From: Amphiura filiformis
Taxonomy: Eukaryota; Echinodermata; Ophiuroidea; Amphilepidida; Amphiuridae
Assembly (NCBI RefSeq): GCF_039555335.1
Contig: NW_027305505.1
Location: forward strand, 332,501 to 396,500
DNA length: 64,000 bases
Direction of reading: 5' to 3'
Shown here one piece after another: positions 1,736 to 20,449 of this stretch. Each line of letters begins with the position of its first letter. Within the stretch, counting starts at the first letter, position 1. Under the pieces are notes generated by a model, which saw only the letters and a program-made list of their open reading frames with translations, was not told where the DNA came from and made no database searches. Made by a program: the position numbers and the translations under genes.

Positions 1736-3395
1736 TTTGGGGGGTAGATTCTTGGCACCCATGTTCAAACACATAAAATATAATATCACTGATTAAGAAA
1801 AAAATGGGTGCCAGTTTTTCCATTAACATTTAGAGCCTCCATTTTCAATTTCAAAATGGCCGCCAATTTTTAAAAAATAATTTGCCAATTATCCATGACT
1901 ATTCATCCAAATGTCATACAATATTTACTATATTTGATCTAAACAATAAGAACACTAGACATACTCTAAATCAGCAAAAATCCAAGATGGTCGCCATGTT
2001 TCAGGCTGCGTAAAATGAACCAATGGACATAGGAAAATGCTTTTAATGACTAACCATATTTTTTGGCATATGAGGAACACATGACTGGAACACGATTTAA
2101 TAAGGCCAATTACTATAAATAATATGTATATAGTCCCCGCCCTCACCGATGTTTGGATATTTTCAAATATCTTGCTATGTTTCTTCTTTGCTCCCTTTCT
2201 ATGTTTCTAAAATTGTTGTAATAAAATGACATGTTAAGAAGTTCTTGGTTATCATTTATAAACTCATTGCAAATACTATCTTTAAGTTAGCGGTAGGGCT
2301 TTGGGGAAATAACACAAATATTAGGGGTTTTCCCGTTTTTTATGATGAGTTGACAAATACTTTGCAATTGAGTAATTGGTCCTAATTGATCCTAATTGCG
2401 TCAATGATCTTCTGGATATTGGCCAAACTTGACCGGAGCTGGAGCAACATGAGAAAGAACTGCCAGTAGCTTATTGTCTAGGTTTCGTCACCCCAAGGTC
2501 AGAGGGTCAAAACAAGTTGGTATCAATACCATATTCTGGCGCCAGATATTAGCCTGACATGGGCATGGCGTATAATGTTCAATCCATGCTCCTTAAGTGG
2601 TGGCAGTTTGTCAACTCCTTCTGAAAAAATATGTTTAGTATTATAATAACAAATTTAAAAATTATGTTTCCGTCGATCATGCTACTGTTTTTCCAAGTCC
2701 CTGTTCATTCTTGCTTGAACAAAAAAAAGCATGGTTGATTGCCCAATGTGGAGTACACTTGGAAAGAAACTCGTCATGAAAGTTGCAAAGCATCCCTTCT
2801 TTCCATTTCCTTGGATATGTCCTGTCGCATCACAGCCTGTGAGAGCATGTCAGTTGATCAAAGCTGCTGATTTCTCTGGGCCAAGCTTGTCATATATGGG
2901 CTGCAGGGAGACTTTGCGCCGTCTTTTGCTTAAGTTTATTCATGATAAGTGCGGAATAGTTGCCAAGTAGTGGTGTTCTACGTAGAGCCAAAGTAGCACA
3001 TCTGTGTATTGTGAATATATGAGTGGAAAGGTAGAGAGTTAGCGAATCCTTTGTGCTGTTGCTGACGAGAATATTAGACGAATGTACCCTATTCAGCGTT
3101 AGCTTTGGATATTTAATTATTTTCGTTTTTCCACCCGACTTACCCGGGTGAAAAATCAATAAAATAATTAAGTGTCCAACGCTAACGTTAAACAGGGAGC
3201 CTCCGCCTTATCCATATTGTCGTCTTTGATGCCTGTTGAGTCTTGATCAATATAGAATTTAGCTCCCTCATCTTGCCTTTCTGCTGTTATCTGATCTGTT
3301 CCTTCTGTGATGCTTTCTTTGTGTATTTATCAAATATAACTTACACTTGACAATATCCTTGAGCTTTTGGGTCAATGAGTAAATGAGGAAAGACG
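1736..3395. repeat. Left arm of a 1.66 kb imperfect inverted repeat
   Basis: Read on the minus strand this matches 20.6-23.29 kb on the plus strand in the same order, with gaps and many substitutions. The outer ends match (GGGGTAGATTCTTGGCACCC here, its reverse complement near 23,285). Further matched blocks are 1,960-2,060 with 22,940-23,030, 2,460-2,580 with 22,305-22,420, 2,955-3,030 with 20,975-21,045, and 3,225-3,395 with 20,600-20,770. The inner end abuts the truncated polymerase gene. The arms could be TIRs of a large composite element or two inverted copies of one transposon; the sequence alone does not decide this. Confidence 0.75.
2731..3393 (-). pseudogene. Decayed copy of a gene family with an 'LALRR.PLLG' motif
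   Basis: No intact frame remains. On the minus strand, short stretches in shifting frames resemble an uncharacterised animal protein family, often multicopy in cnidarian, mollusc and echinoderm genomes. Pieces seen in order are a 'VIFDKYTKKAS' stretch near 3,310, 'LALRRTPLLG' near 2,980, and a later stretch resembling the family's 'GCDTTG.I.GKGK' region near 2,800-2,850. The family recalls PIN/FEN-like folds because of its 'SPDTDVF' motif, which is not preserved here. The same gene lies in the right arm in opposite orientation. Function is unknown. Confidence 0.5.
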
Positions 3396-3945
3396 ATGGA
3401 GAATGTGCGGAATAATGTAAACGTAAGTTTATATCGCTGCCCGGATGAGAATAAGAAGCTGCTAAAAGCTATGGCAAAACCGTCATTCTCGAGAGCGAGA
3501 ATATTCAACCCGAGCCTAGCTGGAGTAGAACAGCACAAAAAAAAGTGTTGTTGAACAAGCCCATTTATGTTGGGATGGCGATTCTCGATCTGAGCAAGCA
3601 GCACATGTACGACTTCTACTACAATCATCTGATGAAGCGATACGGAGATAAGTGCGAGTTGTTGTACACCGACACCGATTCTCTGTTAGTTCACATCGAG
3701 ACTGATGACATGTATCGCGATATGGCTGAAGGGTGTCAAAAAATGCGTCGTGAAGAAAAACTTGACTCACGAGCTGTACAGAGAATCTTTGAATGATACA
3801 AAGATCTTTCGACATGGTATGAACGCTTTGAAAAGCACAAAATATATGGAATTAATTTGACGAAGATCACGCTCTCTCCCCTTGATACAAAGCGTTGGAT
3901 CTCGGAGGATGGAATTCGCACTTTGGCGTACGGTCACTACCTTTT
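3394..3945 (+). pseudogene. Family B DNA polymerase, C-terminal fragment (Polinton/adintovirus type)
   Basis: The frame opens at a MENVRNNV-like stretch, runs through 'NKPIYVGMAILDLSK' (about 3,552-3,600) and carries polymerase motif C, YTDTDSL, at about 3,665-3,690. After a stop at 3,794-3,796 another frame continues with the family's C-terminal end ('SPLDTKRWISEDG', about 3,880-3,915). Known protein-primed polymerases of this type are about 1,000 residues or more, so the exonuclease region and most of the palm are missing. The lost N-terminus coincides exactly with the inner end of the left inverted arm. The gene ends tail-to-tail with the integrase. It cannot be functional as it stands. 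Confidence 0.85.
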
Positions 3946-4946
3946 GAGAACTCCATCCGGAGGTAGTTGAGTGTTGGATGGTACGATCAACAGCTCTTCT
4001 CTAACGAAACCTCTTTTGGACCATCTTCCAAGTAGTACATCATAGGCTCTCCGGGTTTTGCGATGACACTCCCTATTTGATACAAATCCAAAGACCATAT
4101 CGGATCAGTCGCTCTTTTTCGTTCACCACCCTCTAGCTCTCCAGGTTGATACAAATACCTCACATCAACTCCCGAAGCCACCCGTTCTTCATTCGCGTTT
4201 TTAGTAGGTGCTGAAGGTTTAGCGACAACTTCTTTCTTTTTGATTGCATCAATCGGTTTCATTCCTATCAAACGAGTCTCCTCGTTGTTTATAGCCTTCA
4301 CAACTTCTGGCAATCTTGCCACCTATTCTGTAGACCTCGTACCGTTTTCCCCTCGAGCTTCTATCAAGATTTCTTGCGCGTATTGATGTCCAAACAACCT
4401 CTCGGCTAAAGTTCTATTAAATCTTTCTACGATTGCCTGAGCCATGTGCTGTCCAGCTTCTCCTCTTCGCACGCTCACGTTATGCTTTTTCATGAGTTCG
4501 TTTACTTTTCCCATGAACTCCTTTCCTGGATCGACTTGCAAAAGGTTTGGCCATTTAAGCGGGCCTCTTGAGTAAATTTTTTTCGAAAGCTTTGACAACC
4601 TCCCCAGACTCCAGCGAGCTCAGTGGTTCAGCCTCTGTGTACCTACTTGCAACATCCACCACAGTAAAAGCGTATTTGTAAAGCTTACGTCCTCTACCAG
4701 GCCTGTCGTGAGGTAAAAAAAGAAGGTCAGCCTGGTGAACCTCGTTGGGGGGTGCTCACGCTGAATTTTGCTCTAGGGATGTACTTTGGAGGTGGAAGGT
4801 AGATCTGCCAAATAGTCTGCTTTTTCAAAAAGTCCGCAGCTTTTTTCTTTTGTCGTCCCAGCTTCTTTCGCCAACTTGTCTATTGCTGAGACGCCTTTCC
4901 AGTATCCTTTTGGACTGTAATATATTTTTGAAAGTTTGGCGTCCAT
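3939..4946 (-). pseudogene. Polinton-type integrase (rve superfamily), broken
   Basis: This would have inserted the linear viral genome into the host. The start is taken at the ATG at 4,946, which begins 'MDAKLSKIYYSPKGYWKG', a stretch I recall from Polinton/adintovirus-like integrases. Downstream are the rve core pieces 'LLQVDPGKEFMG' (about 4,505-4,540) and 'QAIVERFNRTLAERLFGHQ' (about 4,380-4,437), then a chromodomain-like C-terminal region with 'GVDVRYLYQPGELEGG' (about 4,130-4,175). Breaks: frame loss between about 4,600 and 4,770, an in-frame TAG at 4,320-4,322, and a frameshift near 4,015 after which the C-terminus runs to a stop at 3,939-3,941. It follows the preceding minus-strand gene after only 11 bases. 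Confidence 0.85.
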
Positions 4947-4957: not shown

Positions 4958-5335
4958 TCACATCAATTCGTGAAATTTTTCTAGTAGTCCAAATTTCTCG
5001 GCGTATTCTTCCAGCGCGTTCATATCTCGCTGATCGACCGAGTTCTTCTGAAGAAAATCAACCGTCTTTTCGAGAATATGAATTTCTTCTGTCCGTTCAG
5101 GTATAATCCAAGGTGGTTTTAAGCACAGCCTCATTTTGTACCGATCCTTGTACCACGCGGCAAAGCACAGTAGCAAGGCGTGCGCTTGAAATCTCACCTT
5201 ACTTCCGTTGTACCCGCTCGCGGCAACAAACAGGTTTCCGAGACTTGTTCCGTTCCATGCGAAAAAATCTCCTTTGGGCGCATCCTGTAGCTGCTCGAAT
5301 ATTTCATCGTCAGCTAGCTCAAAATAAATTGACAT
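4958..5335 (-). CDS. Hypothetical virus-block protein, 125 aa
   Basis: Intact frame from the ATG at 5,335 (MSIYFELADDEIFEQL). It is acidic at the N-terminus, with a middle region rich in aromatic and small hydrophobic residues (about residues 25-65) and helical, charged residues at the end. I see no catalytic motif. Its position directly upstream of the integrase in the same direction, and the compact spacing, indicate that it belongs to the virus-like element. A Penelope insertion sits 4 bases upstream of the ATG and must have replaced its promoter. Function unknown. Confidence 0.6.
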   Translation of the reverse strand: MSIYFELADDEIFEQLQDAPKGDFFAWNGTSLGNLFVAASGYNGSKVRFQAHALLLCFAAWYKDRYKMRLCLKPPWIIPERTEEIHILEKTVDFLQKNSVDQRDMNALEEYAEKFGLLEKFHELM

Positions 5336-5339: not shown

Positions 5340-5552
5340 TAGTTGACTAAATTATAATTCTATTCAACTGGACTTACTATTTGTGATGGCTACGGTATCA
5401 CGTCATATCCATGACGCATCATCAGGCCGACTGGTCTTGAATTGGCTCTGTATTCTTGACCTGTGACGTCACGATGGTAGAAGTGACGTCACACGAGAGT
5501 CGTCGAGGGATCTTCCTGATGGTCGGTTCGTAACTCTTGGACAAGTTGTGGC
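5340..5552 (+). repeat. Penelope element, left inverted arm
   Basis: 213 bp, the reverse complement of 7,188-7,400. Begins TAGTTGACTAAATTATAATT and contains several TGACGTCA-type palindromes (near 5,464 and 5,484). Confidence 0.92.
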
Positions 5553-7187
5553 GTAGTCCCCCTCCGCGATTCAAAGTTGGCTCCTCCCTGCGAACATATA
5601 TAGCTTCCTTCACCCCTCTTTCATACCACCTATGTTCTTTATCAAGCACAATAACGTCCTTGTCCTCAAAGTTGTGTTTGGCTGCTTTGAGGTGCGTGTA
5701 TACCGCCGAGTCGTTGAGCCCTGTTGAACTGGGTCGACGATGTTGATACATGCGCTTGTGGAGCGGTTGTTTTGTCTCCCCTATGTAGTAGTTCTCACAA
5801 TCCGAATCCTGGCAGTTAATCGCATAAACAATGTTGCTTTGTTTGCGTTGCGGGATCTCGTCCTTCGGATGGACTAACTTTTGTCTCAGAGTGTTGCAAG
5901 GTTTTAATGAGACAGGGATCTGGTGCTGTCCGAAGATCCTCTTTAACTTCTCAGAAACATCTGAGACATAAGGGAGAGTGATACCGAACTTGCGGGTGCT
6001 CGAAGCGGTGGTAGAAGATTGTTTGGACGATGTTTGGTCCTTTTGCGGTTTCAAAGCTTTATGGAACGTCCAGTCCTTGTACCCACAGGTACCCAAGGCC
6101 GACTTCAGATGTTCGCGTTCACCAGCTTTAGCTTCGTCCGTTGACGGGATGGTCTCCGCGCGGTGAAAGAGCGTTTTGATCACACCGAGTTTGTGGATAA
6201 GTGGATGATGGGAATCAAACTGTAAATATTGGTCCGTATGTGTGGCTTTCCTGTATACTGATGTTGAGAGAGTGCCGTCTGACTGAATTTTGACCAAACA
6301 ATCCAAAAAGGGTAACTCGTTATTGGTCGCACCTTCCTGGGTGAACTTGATATTGCTGTCAACAGAGTTAATGTGGTCAAAAACGGATCTAGTTCGCTCT
6401 TTTTGATCTTAACGAGAGTGTCATCGACATATCGGAACCAATGCGACGATGAAATACCACTGTAAGAGTCTAGTGCAGTCTGTTCAAAGCGTTCCATGTA
6501 AAGGTTCGCGACAATTGGGGAAACGGGGGACCCCATCGCACATCCATGATTTTGTTTGTAACATTTCCCTTCAAACACGAAATAAGTTGAATTGAGGCAC
6601 AATTCCAAAAGCGAACAAATTTGGTCCACGTTCAAGTTGGTTCGTTGACCTAGGGTATTGTCAGCGTGTTAAGCTTCCTTGACTGCGTTTACAGCGCCCT
6701 CCGGTGGGACACTAGTGAACAAGGCCGAAACGTCGTATGAGGTGATAGTTTCGTCAGATTCAACCTTAATGTCCTTTAATTTGTCCACAAGATCGGTAGA
6801 GTTGACAACATGATGACAAGATTTGCCAACTAAGGGCCCAATAATACCAGCCAAATGCTTTGCGAGATTTTAAGTCACTGATGAAATACAACTGACAATT
6901 GGTCTCAAAGGCACATTTTGTTTATGAATTGTTGGTAGGCCGTAGAAACGAGGCACTGACTCAGATGGGCTGAGTTTGTAATACAACGCACGATCGATGG
7001 CCTCAGATTCTTCCAAAGCTTTGAGGGAATCACTAACTTTCTTCTTGTAACCAGAAGTAGGATCCCTCTTGAGAGGTTGGTAAACTTTTGTATCACTCAA
7101 AAGATCGTTGGCTTTGTTTACATAGTCAGATTTGTCAATAACTACTGTGCATCTACCTTTATCAGCCGGTAGCACTAAGATGTCAGA
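5422..7187 (-). pseudogene. Penelope-like RT / GIY-YIG endonuclease ORF
   Basis: Read right to left: 'LPADKGRCTVVID' (about 7,135-7,175) opens the RT; 'GLPTIHK..VPLRPIVSC' (about 6,890-6,945) and 'SYDVSALFTSVP' (about 6,705-6,740) follow, then 'GCAMGSPVSPIVANLYM' (about 6,500-6,550) and the catalytic 'RYVDDTLV' (about 6,415-6,440). The GIY-YIG domain comes next ('IVYAINC...CENYYIGET', about 5,780-5,845). Frame changes near 6,870, 6,660 and 6,250-6,350 break the ORF. The RT N-terminus is missing where the right arm begins. GIY-YIG nicking plus RT is the usual Penelope insertion machinery. Confidence 0.9.
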
Positions 7188-7400
7188 GCCACAACTTGTC
7201 CAAGAGTTACGAACCGACCATCAGGAAGATCCCTCGACGACTCTCGTGTGACGTCACTTCTACCATCGTGACGTCACAGGTCAAGAATACAGAGCCAATT
7301 CAAGACCAGTCGGCCTGATGATGCGTCATGGATATGACGTGATACCGTAGCCATCACAAATAGTAAGTCCAGTTGAATAGAATTATAATTTAGTCAACTA
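7188..7400 (-). repeat. Penelope element, right inverted arm
   Basis: 213 bp, the reverse complement of 5,340-5,552, with no mismatch seen by eye. Confidence 0.92.
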
Positions 7401-7649
7401 TTTGATCTACCTGGATGATTGATAATATTCATAAATAAATTGACATCTTGTTGGTTTTATTTAATAAACGGCAATGTTAGTTACATTTTGGTTATGCGCA
7501 TCGTGTCTTTTGGACACCCCAGAAAGAAGGATGAGGATGGAAGTCAGACGCATGACTGAGGCGCTGGAAAAGTACAACCTAGCCCGCGAGGCGGAAAAAA
7601 AATTTGGTTTATGAAATTGCGAATTGAAAGCAAAAATAAAAGCGAAAAA

Positions 7650-8186
7650 ATGAATCCTGAACAATTCAAAAAACTGGTCGAGGAGCAAAAGTCGACTATC
7701 CTGAAATGGCGAGACTTGAAACAAGGCGAAATTTTTGAAATCAGGGACTTCAGATACATTAAAACCGAGTTCAGCGAGGCAGCGTGTGTTATTGAGCTCG
7801 CGGATGGTCGTGAAGTTTGGGCACCGTATACGCTGAGCAAACAACTTAAGGAAAGAGAGGAAGATTTTCAACATTTGTGTTGCTATGTGATGCCAAAGGG
7901 ACTTGTTCCCTCAAAAAGCAACCCAAAACGAGATTATTATTCATTTGACATTGTCTGGGAGTCTAAAGAAGAATCTGAAAAAATAGAGCTGATTTTGGGT
8001 CTGAAGAAGAAGATGTTTGAAAAGCCGAATTTTCGCAGGTGCGCTTGCGAAATTTGCGAGAAGAGAAAAAACAGAGCCAAAAACAGAGCTGCCACCTGTT
8101 TGAGAGTCCAGCTTGGAATGGAATTCGACGTTTGTTTGAAGAACTGTCAACAAAAAGCCCCTCGAGTGTCGAGGGTATTTTTTTGA
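7650..8186 (+). CDS. Virus-block protein, possible OB/ssDNA-binding-like
   Basis: The ATG at 7,650 (MNPEQFKKLV) fits better than the upstream ATG at 7,611 because it follows an A-rich leader and begins a helix-like stretch. The middle has the pattern 'LKQGEIFEIRDFRYIKTEF' followed by a hydrophobic strand and 'DGREVWAP'. I associate this beta-rich pattern with small proteins common in Polinton-like and adintovirus-like elements, and an OB-like fold is an inference. A cysteine cluster (CACEICEKRK, about residues 131-140) follows. The frame reads into a terminator-like hairpin at 8,159-8,184, so the true C-terminus may be shorter. It is the first plus-strand gene right of the Penelope insertion. 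Confidence 0.6.
   Translation: MNPEQFKKLVEEQKSTILKWRDLKQGEIFEIRDFRYIKTEFSEAACVIELADGREVWAPYTLSKQLKEREEDFQHLCCYVMPKGLVPSKSNPKRDYYSFDIVWESKEESEKIELILGLKKKMFEKPNFRRCACEICEKRKNRAKNRAATCLRVQLGMEFDVCLKNCQQKAPRVSRVFF
8159..8184 (+). terminator. Hairpin plus T-run
   Basis: A perfect 7-bp stem (CCCTCGA, loop GTG, TCGAGGG) is followed by TA and seven T. It sits at the end of the 7,650-8,186 gene. Stem-plus-T-run terminators recur in this block and are unusual for animal genes. Confidence 0.55.
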
Positions 8187-8201: not shown

Positions 8202-8545
8202 ATGTGCAAGTTTTGCGTTTGTGGGAGTCGAAATGATTGTTCGCTTTGTCGTAAATTGCAAATCGTGACCCTTCGTTTTGCGATGTTGAAGAGAGTTGGA
8301 GCGCCTTTGGCAAAATTTTACAAACTTGCGTACGAATATTTGAGCTCGGAAAAATACCACCGGCTTCTGTTCACTCCTCCGAGCCCACTAAAAGTTTGCA
8401 AAGACTGTGCTAGCTCGAGCATTCTTGTTGATGACCTGCCTACATGCTTGGACTGTCGCGTTATTCAATCGGAATTATATTTTATGAACGAGTTTAATGT
8501 TGGAGCAAGGTTGCATCCCCGACCACAGCAAAAAAAAAAAAATAG
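8202..8545 (+). pseudogene. Cysteine-rich zinc-ribbon-like protein
   Basis: Starts at ATG 8,202 (MCKFCVCGSRNDCSLC), with four closely spaced cysteines, then a helical middle and a second cluster 'VCKDCASSSILVDDLPTCLDC' split over about 8,392-8,455. Pairs of CxxC suggest two zinc sites and a nucleic-acid or protein adaptor role (inference). The frame as given stays open to 8,747, through a hairpin and into the next gene. One extra A in the A-run at 8,529-8,542 would bring the TAG at 8,543-8,545 into frame, which I take as the original end. The family is not recognised beyond this. Confidence 0.55.
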
Positions 8546-8566
8546 TGGGAAGGGTACCCCAGGCGC

Positions 8567-8613
8567 AAAAAAATTCTGGAGGTTCAAAAAAGGATCTCCA
8601 GAATTTTTTTTTT
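8567..8613. terminator. Hairpin flanked by A-run and T-run, bidirectional
   Basis: A 10-bp perfect stem (AATTCTGGAG at 8,572-8,581 with CTCCAGAATT at 8,596-8,605) is extended by an A-run on the left and a T-run on the right. It lies exactly between two convergent genes (8,202-8,545 plus and 8,645-9,049 minus), so it could end transcription from both sides. Confidence 0.65.
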
Positions 8614-8644
8614 GCACCAGTTGTGGGTTGCTGGGCTTTTCCCA

Positions 8645-9049
8645 TCAGACAAAGTTATATACGAGAACTCCAGTCGCGACCATACCCATTCCGACCAAGG
8701 CCAGTTTTCCATTTTTGATAGACTCAGTTTGCTCCTCATCGAGATAATTGTATAAACGTATAAGTGCCCCAGTAAGATTGTAATATTGTCGCATCGCGTC
8801 GTCGAAGTCCTCGAAAGTTTTTTTTTTTTTTTCCGCGTGGCCCTGCCGTTTTAGCTGCTGGTTGATATAATCAATTCTCTGAAGACGAGCCTGGTTCCAA
8901 GAATCGCGATCGTGTTGGAGTTTTTCTAAAGCGAGGTCGTGTCTCTTCCTTTCTGCCGAACTAGACAGAATGCTAAAAAGATAATTTGAACCGCTGAATG
9001 CGAGAGCGTTCACCAAAGCTCCTCCAGCCATCATGAGTATTGAAGCCAT
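8645..9049 (-). CDS. Small membrane protein with central coiled coil, 134 aa
   Basis: Intact. An N-terminal hydrophobic segment (about residues 3-30, MASILMMAGGALVNALAFSG) is followed by a charged helical middle (residues 33-100, with EKLQHDRDSW and QQLKRQGHAEKKKK) and a C-terminal hydrophobic segment (residues 115-134). This two-membrane-segment arrangement resembles a family I recall as multicopy 'uncharacterised' genes in cnidarian and other invertebrate genomes, which fits a virus-derived origin. A role in a virion membrane or host membrane is inference. It converges on the 8,202 gene across the bidirectional hairpin. Confidence 0.7.
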   Translation of the reverse strand: MASILMMAGGALVNALAFSGSNYLFSILSSSAERKRHDLALEKLQHDRDSWNQARLQRIDYINQQLKRQGHAEKKKKTFEDFDDAMRQYYNLTGALIRLYNYLDEEQTESIKNGKLALVGMGMVATGVLVYNFV

Positions 9050-9075: not shown

Positions 9076-9618
9076 TTATTTTGTGTGATTTTTTACTCTA
9101 ATTTTTTTTAATTTGTACCAAAGGCCATCTACTTTTGACTGGGCTGACTTTAGTCCAATTTTTTTATTAACAATTGCTGAAATATTTCCATGATTAATGT
9201 CAAGAGCTCTTCCTGTAGCACACATACTTTTGAAGTTTCTTTTTTTACCTGTTTCAACACAAATTGCTACGATTGGAATAGGAGTTTTATTATTGTTTCC
9301 TCTTCGTCCGGCTGGAGCTTTTTGGCAGTTTTTTAAACGTGTAAGAAGCTGAAGATTGTCGATGTGATTGTTTATTCTACTACCATCGATGTGATCTACA
9401 TCAAGATTGGATAGGATTTCCCCTTTGAAGCACTCGTAGACAAATCTGTGTACTTGGTACATTTTTTGTTTGCCATTCAGATAAGCGGCAAAACGTAAAT
9501 AGCCACTGTTGATTGTCGTTGGGTTCAATTTTCGAAATTTTTGCAAGTTCAAAATCTCACCATTTTCCCTGACGCCGTAATTTTTGTAAATTGGATGTTG
9601 AGCGATACAACCCGGCAT
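9076..9618 (-). CDS. HNH endonuclease, homing type (HNH plus NUMOD-like)
   Basis: Intact, ATG at 9,618. The N-terminus has a NUMOD4-like stretch (YGVRENGEILNLQKFRKL). The HNH core follows: 'QVHRFVYECFKG' then 'LDVDHIDGSRINNHIDNLQ' (about residues 75-95), containing the D-H, N and H/N positions expected of HNH_3 nucleases. The C-terminal third has a NUMOD1-like helix-turn-helix pattern (MCATGRALDINHGNISAIVN). Such free-standing nucleases are common in phages and giant viruses and cut DNA lacking them, spreading by repair. Here it lies between structural-type genes on the same strand. It probably entered the element as a selfish gene; this is inferred from family behaviour. Confidence 0.85.
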   Translation of the reverse strand: MPGCIAQHPIYKNYGVRENGEILNLQKFRKLNPTTINSGYLRFAAYLNGKQKMYQVHRFVYECFKGEILSNLDVDHIDGSRINNHIDNLQLLTRLKNCQKAPAGRRGNNNKTPIPIVAICVETGKKRNFKSMCATGRALDINHGNISAIVNKKIGLKSAQSKVDGLWYKLKKIRVKNHTK

Positions 9619-9673: not shown

Positions 9674-9919
9674 TTATCCCGTGATGATATCTTCGGGGAT
9701 TAAACCTTGCTTGACTAAAAAGTCTCTCGTGTAGGTTGCCACTCCAACTGAGAGTGTGAGCTTTCCAATATCCTCCGCGTCGAGCTGTCCCAGATTCGCG
9801 GGTTTGAATGTGAAGAATTTCTTCGCAGTCCAACAGTTTACTGCCATGAGTGCGCTTATCGTCAGCGCGTGATAAGCGCTGTTGACGAGCATGTTAACGT
9901 TTGGATTTTCGCTTGCCAT
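9674..9919 (-). CDS. Small membrane protein, 81 aa
   Basis: I chose the ATG at 9,919 (MASENPNVNMLVNSAYHAL) rather than 9,946, because the upstream gene stops at 9,927-9,929 and 9,919 gives a short gap. A hydrophobic stretch (HALTISALMAVNCWTAKK) follows the N-terminus, and a second moderately hydrophobic segment (IGKLTLSVGVATYTRDFLV) lies near the C-terminus. The pattern 'NVNMLVNSAYHALTISAL' is one I recall from repeated uncharacterised invertebrate genes. Function unknown; it lies in a run of minus-strand membrane protein genes. Confidence 0.65.
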   Translation of the reverse strand: MASENPNVNMLVNSAYHALTISALMAVNCWTAKKFFTFKPANLGQLDAEDIGKLTLSVGVATYTRDFLVKQGLIPEDIITG

Positions 9920-9926
9920 TTTATTA

Positions 9927-10407
9927 CTATTCAAATTCATCGACATATTTTTCTTTTTTTGAAGTGGGTGACGCTGGTGTCTGGGGGGTGGAGACCACCA
10001 TCGATGCAGGTGATGGTGCCTGGGGGATGGACCCCCATGACAAATTGTTTGTGCCTACCCAGTACGCTACGACCCCCAAGAGAATAGCCCCTTCTCCTCC
10101 GACAACGATAATTGGCCAGCTAGATTGTGATTGCTGCGCTTGTGGAGCTGCCTGCGCTGTCTTCTCGGGTTGTGGGAGGGACGCTTGTTGTTCTTCAAAC
10201 GCTTTTAATTTTGCCCTTTTTTCTTCGTTTATCTTCGCCAGTTTTTTTCCGGCGGCAACCTTTTTTGGGTCTTTAGCCCGCGCGCGAGGAGCCGTAACGA
10301 TTTTTGGCTCTTTAGGCTGTGCGTGAGTAGCCGTAACGATTTTTGGCTCTTCGGTGAGCCCTGCGCCAGCAACGATTTCTGACTCTTCGAGTTTTTTTTT
10401 CTTCCAT
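9927..10407 (-). pseudogene. Basic/proline-rich protein with one membrane segment, frameshifted
   Basis: From the ATG at 10,407 the frame fails after five codons at an A-run (10,392-10,400 on the plus strand). One A fewer restores 159 codons, ending at TAG 9,927-9,929. The body has two degenerate 'PKIVTATHAQPKE'-type repeats, then 'DPKKVAAGKKLAKINEEKR', a basic helix. A glutamine/proline-rich linker precedes a hydrophobic segment (WPIIVVGGEGAILLGVVAYWV), and a polar tail follows. The 'DPKKVAAGK' signature plus single membrane segment recurs in the invertebrate families mentioned for the neighbours. One base in a homopolymer is the only defect, so a sequencing error is possible. Confidence 0.65.
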
Positions 10408-10597
10408 TTTATTTATAGATCTTCAGCAGCAGCTCAGTTATTTAGAACAACATAAAAAAATCCTTTGTATTGATCCATTTTTTTAAACTACCTTTGCTCA
10501 GCGACCTGAGCATCATTCTGAGCATCATGCTCAGATCTTGCACTTGCTCAGCACGTCTTCAGCACTTGCTCAACAACTTTGCCTTAATCGATCTCAT
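10408..10597. other. Short spacer with TGCTCAG-type repeats
   Basis: Between two minus-strand genes. It contains repeated GCTCAG/GAGCA words (10,495-10,575) in direct and inverted order. No frame seen. Confidence 0.4.
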
Positions 10598-10948: not shown

Positions 10949-12085
10949 GGTCGTTCGAGCGCGATACTATTTTTGTCGAATACAACAGCAAAAAAACAAG
11001 ACTCACCGTAGAAGGAAATCCGCGAAAATGTCTAGCTCTTAACACTATTAAAGGAAACTAAGGACAGGGAGCTTCTTCATTTTTACGGGAGACGCTGGGA
11101 GTTTCAAAAGCACTAAGAAAACACAACAACAAGCAAAAAGGGCGTCGACGAGTGTGAGAAGAGTTTTGAGGAGAACTCCAACAGGGAGACCAGGCGCAGC
11201 TCGAGTGATGCAAAGGCTTCAAATGGCAAACAATGACATGGAGGGGCTGGGAGTAGACCTTGCGAGTGATCCCGTTGCTAACCAAGAGGAAGTAAAGAAT
11301 TTTTTGGATGCGCAGGGACGTCTCAAGAGACTGTCCGACGTTTAGGAGCACTTGGTAAAAAGGAGAGACGAAAAAGCGGAAGAGCTAGCAAATCTGAAAT
11401 CCCAAGGTCGCAGTTCTGTTAGCTTCGTTAACCTAACCAACGAAGGTGACGAAGGAGAACCCCTTTTGCCCGTAAGCGAAGACGATGCTGAGAAATCTAG
11501 AGAACTGGAAGAGGAGATCAAAACATTTGACCGGGCCATAGCCGATCAAGATGCCAAAGTCAGAAATTCTCTCGAGCGTTTGCGGCAATCTATCGAAAAT
11601 TTCATCGAAAGCGACGATAGTTTGCGCGATCGAATTAGCATGTTGTTTCGACGAGAGGGAGTTACTATTGCTTCGATCATAACCGCAATCGGCATGACAA
11701 TATCGACGATTGTCGCATGGATAGTTGCGGCGACCAAATTGACGGTTTCTACCGTCACTCCTGCACCAAAGCCCGTGCCGCCAAAGCCAAAGCCGAAGCC
11801 AGACCCCGGTCCACAACCTAAGCCCGACCCGCCGACTCCACCAAAGCCAAAAACTTTGACGGATTTGCTCAAGGCTCAGTTACAAAAAATCGCGAATCTT
11901 CTTGCAAAACTCGGAGACAAAGCTTTGGCCGCGTTTCCGGCAATTATTGGAGCTGTGGTCAATTTCGTGCTCAAATCCGTTTCATCCGTAGCTGGATTTT
12001 TAGCCGAGAATCTTTGGGTATTTGCCTTAGCAGTTGGTGGAATTTTGTACACTTCTGCGAAGGAAATTTACGATAAAAAAAATAA
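10849..12085 (+). pseudogene. Long coiled-coil protein with proline linker and C-terminal membrane segments
   Basis: ATG at 10,849 (MPQVFQEYVENQMQKFSL). The conserved beginning includes 'GDTFRKGTTWSFERDTIFV' and 'KKTRLTVEGNP'. The frame shifts by one base near 11,052-11,058, continues with 'SFFIFTGDAGSFKSTKK', meets an in-frame TAG at 11,343-11,345, and resumes with acidic, heptad-like sequence (11,360-11,640). A hydrophobic segment (TIASIITAIGMTISTIVAWI, about 11,665-11,724) is followed by a proline/lysine linker (about 11,760-11,850). At least one more membrane region lies at 11,935-12,060 (AFPAIIGAVVNFVLKSVSS and NLWVFALAVGGILY). A lost A near 12,075-12,082 would restore a stop at 12,083-12,085. 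The head overlaps the opposite-strand gene by 100 bases. Looks like a membrane-anchored structural protein (inference). Confidence 0.65.
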
Positions 12086-12112
12086 ACCCACAGCAATCTG
12101 CCGCGGGTGCAA
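12086..12112. terminator. Weak hairpin with A/T flanks
   Basis: ACCCACAGC and GCCGCGGGT pair with two mismatches around a 5-base loop, between the end of the plus-strand gene and the convergent ankyrin gene. Less convincing than the other hairpins. Confidence 0.3.
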
Positions 12113-12174
12113 AAAATATTTGGTCTACTATTCAAAATCACTTTGCAGAGTTTCACGATGTTTTCGCGCCCTGC

Positions 12175-12642
12175 TCAAGCAGCCCATTCCATTGCCCAAT
12201 CAAAATCAGTAGCGCCGCAGTCTTTGCAAAGTTTCACGATGTCTTCGTGTCCTTCTACAGCAGCCCATGCCATCGCACTGTCAAAATCAGTGGCACCCCA
12301 GTATTTGCAAAGTTTCACGATGTTCTCGTGCCCTTCTCGAGCAGCACATTCCATAGCCACGTCAAAATCAGTGGCGCCCCAGTCTTTGCAAAGTTTCACG
12401 ATGTCTTCATGCCCTCCTTTAGCAGCCCATTCCATCGCCACGTCAAAATCAGTGGCGCCCCAGTCTTTGCAAAGTTTCACGATGTCTTCATGCCCTGTTA
12501 TAGCGGCACATTTCATCGCTCTGTCAAAATCAGTGGCATCCCAATATACCACACCTAGTTGTCGACGAAAATTAGGCGAAATTTTTCGAATCTCATATCT
12601 TATCTCGGATTCAAAATTTGCAATACCTGTTAATTTTTCCAT
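12175..12642 (-). CDS. Ankyrin-repeat protein, 155 aa
   Basis: Intact, ATG at 12,642 (MEKLTGIANFESEIRYEIRK). After about 35 residues come four near-identical repeats of about 29 residues with core 'AAxxGHEDIVKLCKDWGATD' followed by 'FDxAM', and a partial fifth at the C-terminus. This 'GHEDIVKLCK.WGA.DFD' ankyrin variant is the style of nucleocytoplasmic large DNA viruses rather than typical animal ankyrins. Near identity between repeats indicates recent internal duplication. A host-interaction role is usual for viral ankyrin proteins but not shown here. It converges on the coiled-coil gene. Confidence 0.85.
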   Translation of the reverse strand: MEKLTGIANFESEIRYEIRKISPNFRRQLGVVYWDATDFDRAMKCAAITGHEDIVKLCKDWGATDFDVAMEWAAKGGHEDIVKLCKDWGATDFDVAMECAAREGHENIVKLCKYWGATDFDSAMAWAAVEGHEDIVKLCKDCGATDFDWAMEWAA

Positions 12643-12944: not shown

Positions 12945-14958
12945 TTAACGAAAATATACGATGGCTGTTCCAATTAACGCCGCTCCCAAGGTCAATGAAA
13001 GTTTTTTCTCGTCATGCGTCAGGGGGTCTGCGCCCCCAGACCACCAGGGGGCTGCGTCCCCATACCCCCTGGCTGCGTCCTCAACAAGCGGCTCTGTATT
13101 TTCTGGTGGTTCTTCTTCCTCTTCCTGTAGCGGGTCGGGTTGAAAGTCGTCCGGCTCGGATTGCTGGCTTTTAATCACACTTTGTTGGTCATTTACTTCC
13201 GAGTTATATCCAAGGGACAGATCGTCCGACGCGATCTGAATAAAATTGTTGTAGCCGTTCAACGTTCCAAGTTCGACCTCCATGTTGCTCGGAAGCATGT
13301 ACAATCCGTGTCCAACGACAAAGTCGAGCTTGTTCCTAGCGTACTGGAGAGTTCTCTGATACCGGTCGATCGAATCGGGAAGGTCTACCTCTGAATTCGT
13401 CGTCCGTATTCCATAGTGGCGTATAGTGGGGCGCCGCGAATAAACAACTTTTCGAGAAAATCGGGTTTGAAGAAATGCCAATTTAAAATCGAGTTGTGTA
13501 AATCAGACATTCATTATATTTTGTAAATGATGTGAAATTTCTGTAGTAAACTAAATAGATTTTATTGTTATATATTTTCAAAAGAAATAAATACATACTA
13601 TTGCTGGCAAACTGACAATAAAACTATACGTCACTATGGAAAACGAACAAAACGCAATACCCTAACCTTACGTTAACCGTACGCCACCTCGGTCGCCGTG
13701 TAATCCCTATGGCGTTACTTTTCGTCGTTCGTATTCCATAGTGGCGTATGGGTCCGATACGCGTACGCCACTATGACATACGATGTTTTTCATTTTTGCC
13801 GATATTTCATAATTATAAAATGTGTATAAAAAGTGGCGTATGGTCGATACGCCACTATGGAATACGAAAAATGCCACTTTGTGACTATACGCCACATTTA
13901 ATTAATTACTTACTAATTAATTACCTAATTATGACTGATGAGACTTAGAAAAATGAAAGAGAACATCATTAAAAACATATGTGCCAATTTTCAAAAAATG
14001 ACCAAAAATCACTATACGCCACTATGGAATACAGCCGACGAATTGATAGCGTCTTCGACGTTCGCCAAAAATTGCTTTTGAGCGTCAAACGCACTCCCAT
14101 CCCCAAGAATGCTTGATCTTGCTTGGGCTTGCGCTCCGAGGATAGCCCAAACCAAAGTTCGAACGCTGTCGTTAATTCTTGAAACACCAGCCCTGGTGAA
14201 TCCGTTCGAGTGATCCAGAACAAAAGATCCTATCACAGCCATGGCATCACCCCTTCGAATTGACACGTCGGTTATGTCGGGATCGTGATCGAACATTTGG
14301 TCCATCCAGATCGGGTAAGTAGCGTCCCTGCTGTTGCCCAAAAAGTTGACGTGCCCGGTGACGAAGATCTCAAACTTTTTTGTATCGGGGTTTTTGGTAA
14401 TTTCGACTTTGTCCGAGGTCTTCAAACTAAAATCTTTGTGGTAAGTCCGGGTAAATTTTGCTGTGCCCATTCCGTTCCAACGGTCGAACTTTTGCCTCCA
14501 ATTGGCGTGAGTGGAGATCCCGAATTCGGCGCAGATTATTTCGCAGGCATTTGGTCTACGCCGTTCTGGAGAGGATTCCACGAATCTTCAACGGGTAAGG
14601 GACAGCTCATTTGGGACAAAATTTCCCTAGTCTGGTAGTACGCGTGAAAACGCCATACGGATCTGACAAAAGGATCCTGGTGGGTAAGATGCTCCTTCGA
14701 TACTCCGCATCCGCTCGTGGCCGCCCAAACGGCGAAGTTTAACTGCATTTGCCAGAAAACCATCTGATCCGCGAGCCAATTTTCATAATGCTCTGGGTCC
14801 TTGATTCTCGGAAGTTTGTAGCCGCTCCAGACGTTCGGAAATCTCGCAACGAAGCTCGATTTTTTATTGACCCTGATTTCTTGGTTTACTAGACTCCATC
14901 CATGGGTAGACTCGAACACTCCCCCGGTTCGTGGTTGAAAATCTTGATTGTAATCCAT
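12945..14958 (-). pseudogene. Conserved virion-like protein, split by a MITE and a frameshift
   Basis: ATG at 14,958 (MDYNQDFQPRTGGVFESTHG). The conserved N-terminal region contains 'HYENWLADQMVFWQMQLNFA' and 'WAATSGCGVSKEH', features I recall from a multicopy uncharacterised family in cnidarians and other invertebrates. A one-base frameshift occurs in the overlap of the two frames (14,536-14,581). The middle domain (FVTGHVNFLGNSRDATYPIW) runs to 14,045, where a 643-bp MITE interrupts. The remainder (13,393-12,945) continues in register once the MITE and one 4-bp target copy are discounted, with 'YQRTLQYARNKLDFVVG' and a C-terminal membrane segment (LSLTLGAALIGTAIVYF). It starts 19 bases from the divergent 14,978 gene. 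A capsid-associated role is inference. Confidence 0.7.
13398..14040. mobile_element. 643-bp MITE with AATT target duplication
   Basis: Terminal inverted repeats of about 31 bp (13,398-13,428 and 14,010-14,040) contain a perfect 23-bp core, GTATTCCATAGTGGCGTATAGTG, with two differences in the outermost eight bases. AATT flanks both ends (13,394-13,397 and 14,041-14,044). Further copies of the terminal motif lie inside (13,723-13,749 and 13,851-13,873), suggesting a nested or rearranged relative. No transposase frame. Superfamily not assigned. The host gene reads in register across the two flanks, which supports the boundaries. Confidence 0.85.
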
Positions 14959-14977: not shown

Positions 14978-15679
14978 ATGAGTTTTATAACAATTACCGG
15001 CACCGGCAAAGGAAAACCTTATCGTCTGTTGCAAAGTATAGACAATAAATCCAAAAACTTGAAAATTGGAATCAAAAGGATCTCGGGCCGAGTAGGATGG
15101 TTCAACGTCGAAGAAGAACTCGAATGGAGGTACGCTCAAGAAGGGCATGGACCTTCAACAGCGATAAAAATAATCCCGGGGCTGTATAATTTTGACCAGC
15201 TCGTAAAAGAATTCACGAGTCGGATCGATGGACTCGAATTCAAATTCGACGAACGCAATGGACAACTCGACATGACAATTCCCGCGCAGTATGAGATTTG
15301 GTTTCCAGACCGCGTTCGAGGAATGTTCGGATTGGACGACGAAGGGTGGTTATCGGCTGGTGAATACATGGGAGATCGAGCGATAGAATTTTCACCTCGA
15401 AGAATTCTAGTGTACCTGAATCAGCTGTCAACCACGGGTAATCTCGTAAAGAACAATGACGATGTTCTGCAGGAAGGTCGAGTTCTTGGGTGGATAGATC
15501 TCTCAAACGCCGCGTTCGGAGAATACTTCGTCACTAACTATGAGAAACCGAGTTTCAAAAAACTGCAAAATGGAACCATCCACGAGCTAGACTTCGACTT
15601 CAAAGTAGAGCGGAAAAATTCTTCGAGAAAGCTCGATAATCATGGTCAACCGCTGGATTTGGAATTGGAAATACGATAG
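14978..15679 (+). CDS. Virus-block protein, beta-rich, 233 aa
   Basis: Intact, ATG at 14,978 (MSFITITGTGKGKPYRLLQS). The sequence alternates hydrophobic strands with turns throughout ('KIGIKRISGRVGWFNVEEEL', 'AIKIIPGLYNFDQLVKEF', 'RILVYLNQLSTTGNLV', 'IHELDFDFKVE'), with no membrane segment or catalytic motif. The pattern suits a beta-sandwich. A penton-like or minor capsid jelly roll is a reasonable hypothesis given the fibre gene immediately downstream, but that is inference. Only 19 bases separate its ATG from the divergent start at 14,958, so the two genes must share a very short promoter. Confidence 0.65.
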   Translation: MSFITITGTGKGKPYRLLQSIDNKSKNLKIGIKRISGRVGWFNVEEELEWRYAQEGHGPSTAIKIIPGLYNFDQLVKEFTSRIDGLEFKFDERNGQLDMTIPAQYEIWFPDRVRGMFGLDDEGWLSAGEYMGDRAIEFSPRRILVYLNQLSTTGNLVKNNDDVLQEGRVLGWIDLSNAAFGEYFVTNYEKPSFKKLQNGTIHELDFDFKVERKNSSRKLDNHGQPLDLELEIR

Positions 15680-15692
15680 AATAAAAGAAAGA

Positions 15693-16760
15693 ATGTCTAT
15701 CTGGGGACCGACAATCGAAACGGAATCGACGCCAACAGCTGGCGAAGATCTGGATCTTTCAGCGTACGTCAAAAAAAAAACTGGTACGAGAATGACCGGA
15801 AGGATTTACATGGGAGGCAAAAAAGAAACGGGTCTAGCTAATCCAACCGAGCCACAAGATACAGCTACTGCGCAGTACGTTGCAAATTACGTGACACATC
15901 TCAACGATATCAAACTAAATACATCCGGGGGAACATTGACGGGCGAGCTCGCGATGAGTGAGCACAGAATCACGGCTCTTGGAGGTCCTGCCGAAAACAA
16001 AGATGCCACGTCAAAAGAATACGTGGACGCTCAGGTGCAGCTGTTAAAAGAGTACGTGGACGTTCTGGTGCAGCACGAACACGATATAGCCGTGCACAAT
16101 GTGGGAAGGTACATCGCATTACCCAACGAAGAAGACGGAACGGTAACATATTTTTTCCGTGAGGGCTAAGAAAAATGTAGATCTAGATTTAGACAAGCCG
16201 GTGGAGATCAAAAACGGGCAAGCCTTCAACGCTGACTCGAAACAAATAATTATTAATGGCATTCCTACTGCGACTCTGCCTAACGAAGGAAAAGATCTCG
16301 AAATCATGCAACTCAGTCGAGAATTAGAAATTGTCTTCAATTTAAACCTCGCGATACGTCAACCGTGGAATCTTAGCTTTGTAGCCAAACCTGGAGATCA
16401 AAGCCCTCACGCGAACAATGCCATTTCGTTGACGTTTCAACCTAATCTAAGAACTTTTGCGTATTTGAACATCACCTGGAATGACGATGGAATAAGCTAC
16501 GTTGTACTAAACAATGCGAGAAAGGTGGATCACGCAGATTCATTGGAATTGGACGTGAGCCAGATGAATCACATCTCGATCGAGTACGTTCAAAACAAGT
16601 TGTGCTTTTGGATAAACGGTCATCAAAGACAAAATATGTACAGAACTCAAAGTTTCTACAGTAGAGTTTCTACGATAGAAACCTAGGTAAGCCGGAGATC
16701 GTTCAGCACTTCATCGACAATTACGTTTTGAATTTTACGAACGATGTAGTTTTGGTATAA
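15693..16760 (+). pseudogene. Fibre-like protein with phage-tail-type repeats, frameshifted
   Basis: ATG at 15,693 (MSIWGPTIETESTPTAGEDL), 13 bases after the preceding stop. Two repeat blocks follow, each with 'TLTGELAMSEHRITALGG'-like or 'GRIYMGGKKETGLANPTEP' strands ending in 'DTATAQYV' or 'DATSKEYVD'. This 'M.G..I..L..P....DA....YVD' pattern is typical of phage tail fibres and trimeric beta-helical spikes. A T-run at 16,151-16,156 carries one base too many. The next frame adds a globular C-terminal domain (about 16,160-16,680, with 'NNAISLTFQPNLRTFAYLNI'). Another shift near 16,680 leads to the stop at 16,758-16,760. It probably encoded a receptor-binding or surface spike. Confidence 0.75.
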
Positions 16761-16766
16761 ATAAAG

Positions 16767-17444
16767 ATGAAGAATCCAAGCGCACCACAAATGTATCCCG
16801 ATCTTCCCGATAATCGACAGCCAGCGACCGGAGGGCAATTGGAGAGCGAGCAAGGAGTCCAATTCCGAATGAGATTTCCAAGATCAGAGATTTCCTGGAA
16901 AATGAGGTCAACCAAAGAAACCAGCTCAGACGAACGTATAAAACTTTTTGGAACGTCTTTTATAACACCGCTCAAGTTTCCGGGCTCATCGCGGTTGGAT
17001 CTGGAACGGGGGCTGTGGGGACGCTGGCTACGGGAGTAGGGGCCTTCGTAAGCATTCCCCTAGGAGGAATCGCAATCGCTGGTGGTGTAGTCAGCGGAGT
17101 TTGCGTGGCCCTCGGAAAAGTGACCATGAAAAAAATTCAAAAACATGAATGTGTCAAACGTACCGCTGAAAGTAGTCTGAACACTATAAATGATCTTGTT
17201 TCAAACGCCCTCCGAAACGGACAAGTGAGCAACGAAGAATTCCACCATATCCTGAAGAGATGGAGAATTACCGGAGTCACAAGGCCAAAATTAAGCACCA
17301 GACCCGCGGAGCCCTGATCGCATTGACGGCTGACAGAGAGAGAGAAACTCGCGCGGAAGCCGAAAAGGTCGGGGAGGAACGCGAAAAAAAGCTCTGGCGG
17401 ATCTCCTCAATACCGCTGGGTTGAAGAGCGAGGCAAAAAATTAG
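16767..17444 (+). pseudogene. Membrane protein with glycine-rich hydrophobic core, frameshifted
   Basis: ATG at 16,767 (MKNPSAPQMYPDLPDNRQP), six bases after the fibre gene ends. A frame change at about 16,830-16,850 leads to a charged helix, then a long glycine/alanine hydrophobic region (GTGAVGTLATGVGAFVSIPL and GGIAIAGGVVSGVCVALGKV, about 16,995-17,115). A helical C-terminal part follows ('SSLNTINDLVSNALRNGQVS', then a basic stretch after a shift near 17,265). A last shift near 17,390 gives a stop at 17,442-17,444. The 'TGVGA...GIAIAGGV' core with a coiled tail recalls an uncharacterised multicopy invertebrate family. It looks like a pore- or membrane-interacting virion protein (inference). 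Confidence 0.6.
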
Positions 17445-17803: not shown

Positions 17804-17934
17804 ATGCTCTGGAAGAGCTAGCTGACCTAAGGTGTACAAAAGAGTTAGTTTTAAAAAAGTGTAAAGAAGAACTTTCCGAAACAATAGCGGTGCAAAAAAA
17901 AATCGATAAACTGCCTCCAAGCTCACGAGCCAAT

Positions 17935-17971: not shown

Positions 17972-17991
17972 ATGTTCAATTTGTTGAAGAT

Positions 17992-18342
17992 TTAACCAAC
18001 AAATAAATCTTCAAATGTTGTAATCGTATAGACTGTCCACGGACCTCTTGGGTTATAATCTTTGTATCGACCTTCGGCTTTCTTACATCCATTTTTATAC
18101 CAACATGTAAAATATACCGGATACCCCTCTTCTTTAAATTCTAATTCAGCCTCTTTTTGCCCGTTATCATAGTACCATTTCCATCTACCGCTCGGGTTAC
18201 CATTTTTCCACGTTTCTTTTCGAAAATGCCCTCTTTTTCTCAATTCTTCTATAAAGTCATCATACGTATCATTGCCACCCCAGTGCCAACCTGGCAGATC
18301 TGGTGGATCTATTTCTTCGTTACCGCTTGGTCTAGAACCCAT
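17992..18342 (-). CDS. YwqK/MORN-like repeat protein, 116 aa
   Basis: Intact, ATG at 18,342 (MGSRPSGNEEIDPPDLPGWH). The core holds two or three repeats of the type 'G.W.WYYDNGQKEAELEF' and 'YKNGCKKAEGRYKD' (about residues 45-100), the pattern of the YwqK/MORN_2 family found in bacteria and giant viruses. Each repeat forms a beta-hairpin. Its biochemical role in viruses is unknown. It converges on the coiled-coil gene across a terminator-like hairpin. A tandem repeat lies upstream, where its promoter would be. Confidence 0.75.
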   Translation of the reverse strand: MGSRPSGNEEIDPPDLPGWHWGGNDTYDDFIEELRKRGHFRKETWKNGNPSGRWKWYYDNGQKEAELEFKEEGYPVYFTCWYKNGCKKAEGRYKDYNPRGPWTVYTITTFEDLFVG

Positions 18343-18377
18343 TTTTTTTTATTTGTACACCGTAAATTTAAATTGAA

Positions 18378-19417: not shown

Positions 19418-20139
19418 TCAAAATAGCGATATCGCATCCACCATCATCTGATAGATAGCAGGCGGTGATGGAAGCGATATCACCAATTTTTTTGCGTATT
19501 TTTCTTTTAATTGACACAAAATTTTCTGTTTGTTCTCTTGGTAATATTTACAAAAATATTCCTTTGAACAATGCTGTTTTGTATCCAAACCCAACTCGTG
19601 ACAAAACTTAAAGCCGTGCTTGGATTGCAAAGACGAAGCGGCGTAAAATTTCTTATTCTTCTTTTGAGTCAATGGAATCCATTTTTCGTCGAAGTACACA
19701 AGCAATCGATGTCCTTCAGTTTTTGACTCAAGAAAAATTTCATTCGCAATTTTGTGAAATTTTTGAATTCATCCATCCTTTCCTCTTGAATTTGCTCTTG
19801 CGCCATGTTTTCACTACATCGGGGAGCTGGTATTGGTCTTTTGGTTCGGGGAGCTGGTATTGGTCTTTGGGTTCGGGGAGCTGGTATTGGTCTTTGAGAT
19901 CGGGGAGCTGGTCTTGGTCTTTGGGTCCGGGAAGCTGGTGTTGGTCTTTGGGTTCGGGGAGCTGGTATTGGTCTTTGAGATCGAGGGGCTGTAATGGTCT
20001 TTGAGATTGGGGGGTGTTGAGGTATCAGTAGATTGTCAGTTTCTTGCAACAAATTCGTCAAATCCTCTTTATTCAAACGGTAATAGCCCCTCAAGCCAGC
20101 ATCTTTGGCTATGGATCGTAATTCTTTTACGGTCGGCAT
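19418..20139 (-). pseudogene. SAP-type DNA-binding protein with proline-rich repeats
   Basis: ATG at 20,139. The N-terminus (MPTVKELRSIAKDAGLRGYY) plus 'RLNKEDLTNLL' matches the SAP/Rho-N helix-extended-helix fold that binds DNA. Eight repeats of 'PAPRTQRPI' type follow (about residues 50-107), all nearly identical. A charged helical region then leads to the break at 19,669-19,705, where the frame shifts. The remaining C-terminus (FDEKWIPLTQKKNKKFY to about 19,418) is basic with several cysteines. I recall SAP plus 'PAPRTK' repeats from adintovirus-like invertebrate elements. It may be a genome-binding or packaging protein (inference). Confidence 0.7.
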
Positions 20140-20449
20140 ACTTTTATTATATATTTCTTTTTTTTTAATGATTTTTTTTTTCTATTGGGCTGGCCATAAG
20201 CCAATTTTTTTTTGCTCAAAAATTTCACGAATTTTGTGATTTTTTTTGTTTGCTCAATGAAGTACCGTTCATAGACATAGCTCTGTCAAAGTGGATGTGC
20301 AAAATTCACGAATTCACGAATTTGTCCATGACCCCAATGAATGACATTCATAGACATAGCTCTGTCAAAGTGGATGTGCAGAAAAAATGCGCGCATGTGC
20401 GCGCATGGTTTTGAACCCCTAGTAATCATCTACTGTTCTGGAAGATCTG
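20140..20449. other. Right end of virus-like block, gene-free
   Basis: Contains a hairpin flanked by T-runs (20,183-20,212, TTGGGCT...AGCCAA), two direct repeats related to the 10.6 kb gene, and a near-palindrome ATGCGCGCATGTGCGCGCAT (20,388-20,407). No open frame of note. No Polinton-type TIR partner was found at the left end of the block, which is truncated. Confidence 0.5.
20265..20385 (+). repeat. Two direct copies of a gene fragment
   Basis: TTCATAGACATAGCTCTGTC and following bases occur at about 20,270 and 20,347. Each is about 35 bp and matches the coding strand of 10,720-10,760 (residues IDIALSKW of the 10,598-10,948 gene). These are stray copies of part of another gene of the block. 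Confidence 0.75.

What the first reader, a model, noticed from the sequence alone, without database searches (positions are those of the whole stretch)
3394..20440. A compact virus-like gene block without a recognisable capsid/packaging set
Seen: polymerase B and integrase of Polinton/adintovirus type beside about 15 short, tightly packed genes with short spacers, including fibre-like, membrane, coiled-coil and conserved beta-rich proteins. Known: Polintons and adintoviruses normally carry double-jelly-roll and penton capsid genes, an FtsK-like ATPase and an adenain-like protease; I recognise none. Inference: either those genes were on the lost left part, or this is a lineage with a different, possibly undescribed virion. 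Several families here recur as 'uncharacterised' proteins in invertebrate genomes, so the lineage may be widespread.
Basis: partly seen in the sequence, partly recalled or inferred. Interest (0 to 1): 0.88.

Follow-up and report, generated by a model that had tools for sequence, protein, structure and literature searches.

The report
Decayed Polinton-like element with penton
This stretch of an animal-like genome holds the decayed remains of a DNA virus-like element that does carry a likely capsid vertex protein, next to a widespread helical, membrane-anchored protein whose predicted shape matched nothing in the libraries searched.

Summary
The compact gene block is real: 14 ATG-started ORFs of 120 aa or more in three insert-free stretches, against 1.0 on average in shuffles. 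The claim that no capsid gene is recognisable is wrong on one point. A phage-tail-fibre-like gene overlaps its end. The large product at 12.9-15.0 kb is one protein family, broken here by a frame change and a 0.6-kb insert. Relatives are abundant (639 hits; the 120 listed are 324-511 aa). The model of a full-length relative is helical, ends in a likely membrane anchor, and has no significant match in BFVD or PDB. [quoted passage not shown] But the polymerase survives only as a fragment, so those genes may have been lost. Best reading: a broken Polinton-like endogenous element with a penton-fibre vertex and an undescribed tail-anchored, probably virion-associated protein. A wholly new capsid is possible, not shown.

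The parts
14978..15679 (+). Penton-like single jelly-roll capsid vertex protein, 233 aa, open ORF
14536..14958 (-). First stretch of the broken helical tail-anchored protein (N-terminal 140 aa)
   Evidence: 90% identical to residues 1-136 of full-length relative P0169
14012..14581 (-). Second stretch of the same protein, in another frame
   Evidence: 88% identical to residues 137-307 of P0169; 167 homologs
12945..13481 (-). Third stretch: C-terminal part with acidic linker and hydrophobic end
   Evidence: 81% identical to residues 306-446 of P0169; helix 424-445 in the P0169 model
13389..14049 (.). Inserted short repeat with inverted ends, splitting the gene above (limits approximate)
   Evidence: arms 13389-13428 and 14010-14049, 90% complementary
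15642..16169 (+). Fibre-like protein, shaft part; overlaps the penton gene end
   Evidence: PHROG head decoration E 5.6e-8 and tail fibre E 1.6e-6 over about 35 residues each; tail fibre gp9 E 0.011 in PDB
16159..17317 (+). Probable continuation of the fibre gene in broken frames: a middle part, then a hydrophobic end (inferred)
   Evidence: ORFs and stop-to-stop stretches; hydrophobic stretches; no Pfam or PDB match for 16159-16683
3455..3793 (+). Fragment of a type-B DNA polymerase
   Evidence: PF00136 E 0.037-0.055, below cut-off, at the YTDTDSL motif
3987..4755 (-). Retrovirus-type (rve) integrase, broken in several frames; may extend to 5057 (inferred)
   Evidence: PF00665 E 1.5e-6 on 4558-4755; RSV integrase chains E 0.5-0.7 on 4326-4619
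4958..5335 (-). ORF of unknown function, 125 aa, beside the integrase
   Evidence: ORF; no convincing Pfam match
7611..8186 (+). Basic protein of 191 aa, unknown function
   Evidence: ORF; no convincing Pfam match
8202..8747 (+). Cysteine-rich basic protein of 181 aa
   Evidence: ORF; weak PLATZ match E 0.0049 below cut-off
8645..9049 (-). Small membrane protein with charged middle and hydrophobic ends
   Evidence: hydropathy peaks at residues 1-19 and 116-134
9076..9618 (-). HNH endonuclease
   Evidence: PF13392 E 4.6e-12
9674..9946 (-). Small protein of 90 aa, unknown function
   Evidence: ORF; no Pfam match; no hydropathy peak
9930..10412 (-). Membrane protein, 161 aa stop-to-stop stretch
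   Evidence: hydropathy peak
11052..12212 (+). Basic, then coiled-coil and proline-rich, then membrane protein; one frame with an in-frame stop
   Evidence: stop-to-stop stretches 11052-11342 (pI 11.4) and 11346-12209 with hydrophobic stretches; coiled coil by eye
12175..12642 (-). Ankyrin-repeat protein
   Evidence: PF00023 E 6.1e-9; 81-nt tandem units
17992..18342 (-). MORN-repeat-like protein
   Evidence: PF07661 E 2.5e-4, below cut-off
19669..20139 (-). Basic protein with a Rho_N/SAP-like start and proline-rich repeats
   Evidence: PF07498 E 5.4e-5, just below cut-off
5340..7400 (-). Penelope-like retroelement inserted in the block (not part of the virus-like set)
   Evidence: 213-nt inverted arms, 100%; RVT_1 E 3.6e-8, GIY-YIG E 4.2e-4
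1741..3398 (.). Left inverted arm, possible terminal repeat
   Evidence: five collinear inverted blocks with 23283-20589, 642 of 759 ungapped columns identical
20589..23283 (.). Right inverted arm, possible terminal repeat
   Evidence: as above; best of 100 shuffles 34 bits against 261 observed

Best explanation
The block is the broken genome of an endogenous Polinton-like DNA virus or self-synthesising transposon. It integrated by an rve integrase and replicated with a type-B polymerase (inferred from fragments). Its capsid vertices would be built from the penton at 14978-15679, carrying the fibre encoded directly downstream (penton by predicted structure; fibre by sequence similarity; the joint vertex is inferred from gene order). 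The neighbouring protein, 446 aa in its closest full-length relative, is encoded on the other strand with its start codon 19 bases from the penton's. It is a predicted helical, tail-anchored protein. I think it most likely sits in or under a virion membrane and links it to the capsid, with its variable middle insert exposed (inferred). The several other small hydrophobic products fit a virion with a membrane. The double-jelly-roll major capsid protein, the packaging ATPase and the protease were most likely lost together with most of the polymerase gene, or are supplied by other copies.
Against: The penton fit is modest (TMq 0.34-0.56 for the 23 best viral-library matches; rmsd 6-8 and one 16 in the eight rows); only the mavirus rows are named penton in that listing, the chain identities of the others are recalled. 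The linkage test rests on equal contig lengths, not names; over all 48 penton rows chance gives 2 or more in 6.6% of trials (0.2% among the 29 rows of 4 kb or more). The polymerase assignment is below Pfam's cut-off, and the rve match is too (28.8 against 32.6 bits). A virion role for the tail-anchored protein is not shown. The element's true ends are not proven: the inverted arms differ at about 15% of ungapped columns and by large gaps while many ORFs are still open, which fits badly with arms that were identical at insertion.
Confidence: 0.6

Rival explanations
1. Ordinary Polinton/adintovirus-type element whose double-jelly-roll capsid protein, ATPase and protease were lost from this copy; the tail-anchored protein is an accessory or host-interaction membrane protein, not a structural one.
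For: The polymerase keeps only a fragment beside the left arm; a penton is present and pentons go with double-jelly-roll capsids in the cases described by Krupovic 2014 (part of the Findings read); a Hydra Polinton with such a capsid protein is in print, and cnidarian capsid genes are noted as lying outside the main Maverick-Polinton group in PMC10120064 (passages).
Against: In Polintons the penton gene is typically beside or one gene away from the capsid gene. Here both neighbours are known (tail-anchored protein, fibre) and neither looks like a double jelly roll by the evidence here.
Confidence: 0.35
2. A lineage whose capsid shell is built by the tail-anchored helical protein together with the penton, that is a virion of a new design.
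For: The largest conserved product, with many relatives; adjacent to the penton; well-scored helical core without significant match in BFVD or PDB; no other open stretch of the block reaches 300 aa.
Against: Pentons are known only beside jelly-roll shells (recalled); a C-terminal membrane anchor is unusual for a shell protein (recalled); the block is incomplete; a missing match does not prove a new fold.
Confidence: 0.15
3. A composite of two or more broken elements brought together by rearrangement between inverted copies, so that the gene set is not that of any one virus.
For: The polymerase fragment reads inward at the left edge while the Rho_N/SAP-like ORF reads inward at the right edge; a 45-nt piece of the 10.7 kb region recurs inverted and duplicated at 20.26-20.38 kb.
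Confidence: 0.2
4. The conserved products are host proteins, the virus-like impression being accidental.
For: Some relatives lie on contigs of several megabases.
Against: Penton fold, rve integrase, fibre-like repeats and gene density.
Confidence: 0.03

Closest known systems
Polintons/Mavericks (Polintoviruses), Krupovic et al. 2014, PMC4028283 (abstract, first part of the Findings and the list of supplements read)
   Same: rve integrase, type-B polymerase fragment, penton, tightly packed genes over about 15-20 kb
   Different: no double-jelly-roll capsid gene, ATPase or protease found here; the penton's neighbours are a tail-anchored helical protein and a fibre
Adintoviruses and other meldviruses, Buck et al. 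2024, PMC11071296 (abstract, passages and one section read)
   Same: polymerase and integrase with adenovirus-like penton; the paper also reports genomes uniting adintovirus-like replication genes with unlike virion genes
   Different: no hexon recognised; the polymerase start, where the OTU-like domain would lie, was not found; no chromodomain found in the integrase pieces
Mavirus and Sputnik virophage vertex proteins
   Different: 233 aa against 301 and 362; 12 and 10% identity; different neighbours
Phage head-decoration and tail-fibre families (PHROG 2647, 26630, 2710)
   Same: short repeat motif in 15642-16169
   Different: each match covers about 31-35 residues; the gene sits behind a penton

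Membership tests
[quoted passage not shown]
   only a 113-aa stretch, PF00136 E 0.037-0.055 below cut-off
Polinton/Maverick | rve-type integrase | tested here: met
   PF00665 E 1.5e-6, 28.8 bits (curated cut-off 32.6) on one 66-aa piece of a broken gene; a D and an E with 34 residues between them in 4326-4619
Polinton/Maverick | penton (single jelly-roll minor capsid protein) | tested here: met
   predicted structure
Polinton/Maverick | double-jelly-roll major capsid protein | tested here: inconclusive
   no Pfam capsid match among 40 stretches scanned, several overlapping and four from the arms; the only large conserved product models as helical; the block is truncated
Polinton/Maverick | FtsK-like packaging ATPase | tested here: inconclusive
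   no G....GK[ST] motif in any of 360 open stretches of 30 aa or more over 2901-21000; block truncated
Polinton/Maverick | adenain-like protease | tested here: inconclusive
   no Pfam match to such a protease among the 40 stretches; block truncated
Polinton/Maverick | long terminal inverted repeats with short target duplication | tested here: inconclusive
   inverted arms, 84.6% identical over 759 ungapped columns; no target duplication abutting both ends
Adintovirus | hexon recognisable by BLASTp | not tested
   no adintovirus hexon sequence was compared; absence of a Pfam match only
Adintovirus | polymerase with N-terminal OTU-like domain | not testable with these tools
   polymerase N-terminus not found as such in this copy
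Adintovirus | integrase with C-terminal chromodomain | tested here: inconclusive
   no Pfam chromodomain match in the integrase pieces; the gene is broken

The most novel reading that the evidence does not exclude
A widespread lineage of Polinton-like animal viruses builds its particle from a jelly-roll penton and fibre at the vertices and a tail-anchored, helical shell or membrane-scaffold protein of a fold not matched in BFVD or PDB, in place of the double-jelly-roll capsid protein.
Probability: 0.15. Interest if true: 0.9.

Novelty: new variant of a known kind. Interest (0 to 1): 0.5.

Why it matters
It turns an unexplained set of 'uncharacterised' proteins into a testable virion module: a penton and fibre at the vertex, and beside them an abundant protein family with no structural match found. 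If intact copies lack a double-jelly-roll gene, the link between jelly-roll vertices and double-jelly-roll shells would be broken for the first time known to me. If they have one, a new tail-anchored virion-membrane protein of Polinton-like viruses is still gained.

Tried and rejected
Relatives in other collections: no relatives were confirmed in the viral contigs for the middle piece, A1, A2, the polymerase fragment, 8648-9049 and 7611-8183, nor in the prokaryote genome contigs for A2 and A1. These scans use short exact patterns, so they do not exclude distant relatives. No whole genome is held for the window, so copy number and host were not tested; that the host is a cnidarian or similar is only a guess.

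TIR idea: the arms look like terminal repeats, but they are more diverged than the open genes suggest (84.6% over ungapped columns), and they carry remnants of a shared outward-reading ORF. They may be an older flanking repeat instead. I keep this as unresolved.

The idea that the Rho_N/SAP-like ORF at the right edge is the start of the polymerase is recalled knowledge only and was not tested.

Literature: the searches showed, in the titles and abstract starts listed, no paper on such a penton plus tail-anchored protein pair in Polinton-like elements. One search listed 15 of 449 papers, 13 of 14, one fewer than found. Most subscription papers are not held. Four papers were opened (PMC11071296, PMC10120064, PMC6431247, PMC4028283), passages or sections, none whole.
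Full report
What was claimed.

The block is real. With the three insert-free stretches 3399-5339, 7401-13388 and 14051-20588 counted apart, there are 14 ATG-started ORFs of 120 aa or more on the two strands together, against a mean of 1.0 (at most 5) in 300 shuffles and 0 and 1 in two overlapping control stretches of 14.4 kb further along the window. The integrase is supported in pieces (rve, E 1.5e-6 but below Pfam's own cut-off, on 4558-4755; the neighbouring piece matches RSV integrase chains weakly, E 0.5-0.7). The polymerase is only a short fragment with a sub-threshold match. An HNH endonuclease (E 4.6e-12) and an ankyrin protein (E 6.1e-9) are also there.

Intruders and edges. A Penelope-like retroelement with 213-nt identical inverted arms lies at 5340-7400 (RVT_1 E 3.6e-8 and GIY-YIG E 4.2e-4). 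A short repeat with inverted ends lies at about 13389-14049. The whole block lies between inverted arms 1741-3398 and 23283-20589: six matching blocks, five of them collinear (best 261 bits; best of 100 shuffles 34 bits). Over the five, 642 of 759 ungapped columns agree (84.6%), with many gaps. Arms identical at insertion would hardly have diverged so far while many genes stayed open, so the arms may be an older flanking repeat (inference). No target duplication abuts both ends.

A fibre follows. ORF 15642-16169 starts inside the end of the penton gene and matches phage head-decoration and tail-fibre families over about 35 residues (E 5.6e-8 and 1.6e-6; tail fibre gp9 E 0.011). It probably continues in broken frames to about 17317, through a part without Pfam or PDB match to a hydrophobic end.

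Association. A penton hit and a tail-anchored-protein hit share the contig lengths 5129 and 14964: 2 shared values between 48 penton rows and 236 of the 237 distinct rows listed for the other family (one was left out in typing). Jittered lengths give 2 or more in 6.6% of trials over all 48 rows and 0.2% over the 29 rows of 4 kb or more. This suggests physical linkage elsewhere; it is not proof.

What was not found. No P-loop motif occurs in 360 open stretches of 30 aa or more over 2901-21000, and no capsid, packaging-ATPase or adenain-like protease family matched the 40 stretches given to Pfam, several overlapping and four from the arms. Since the polymerase is mostly missing, genes may have gone with it.

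Comparison with print. Krupovic et al. (PMC4028283, abstract, first part of the Findings, list of supplements) find whole or split capsid genes in more than 80%, the ATPase in 83% and the protease in 74% of 72 Polintons, and place the penton gene beside or one gene from the capsid gene. Bellas et al. (PMC10120064, passages) note that cnidarian capsid genes fall outside the main Maverick-Polinton group. Buck et al. (PMC11071296, abstract, passages and one section) describe genomes with adintovirus-like replication genes and unlike virion genes. PMC6431247 was seen in passages. None of what I read describes the tail-anchored family.

Verdict. A broken Polinton-like element with a penton-fibre vertex module and an undescribed, widespread, tail-anchored protein beside it. 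It is a new variant of a known kind; the bolder reading, a shell of new design, is kept at 0.15.

Noticed in passing
53845-63098: Two direct copies of 2.5 kb (98.4% identical) flank a gag-like ORF with zinc knuckles and an aspartic protease ORF; none of the ORFs of 130 aa or more between them is a reverse transcriptase, so it looks like a non-autonomous LTR element with very long LTRs.
   Followed up: partly
44968-48763: A LINE-type retroelement: endonuclease (E 6.1e-12) and reverse transcriptase (E 2e-35) ORFs.
   Followed up: partly
5340-7400: Penelope-like element with perfectly matching 213-nt inverted arms, probably a recent insertion into the block.
   Followed up: yes
14958-14978: The start codons of the penton and of the tail-anchored protein lie on opposite strands with 19 bases between them, so any promoter must be tiny or lie inside a gene (sequence).
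   Followed up: no
10730-10774 and 20256-20383: A 45-nt coding piece recurs inverted and twice near the right edge (96 and 91% identical), unexplained.
   Followed up: no
12142-12546: The ankyrin gene is built of 81-nt tandem units 82-86% identical, unusually uniform.
   Followed up: no
18397-18802: Tandem repeat with a period of about 137 bp, copies 99 and 76% identical to the first.
   Followed up: no
1741-3398 and 20589-23283: Inverted arms carry remnants of the same outward-reading ORF.
   Followed up: partly
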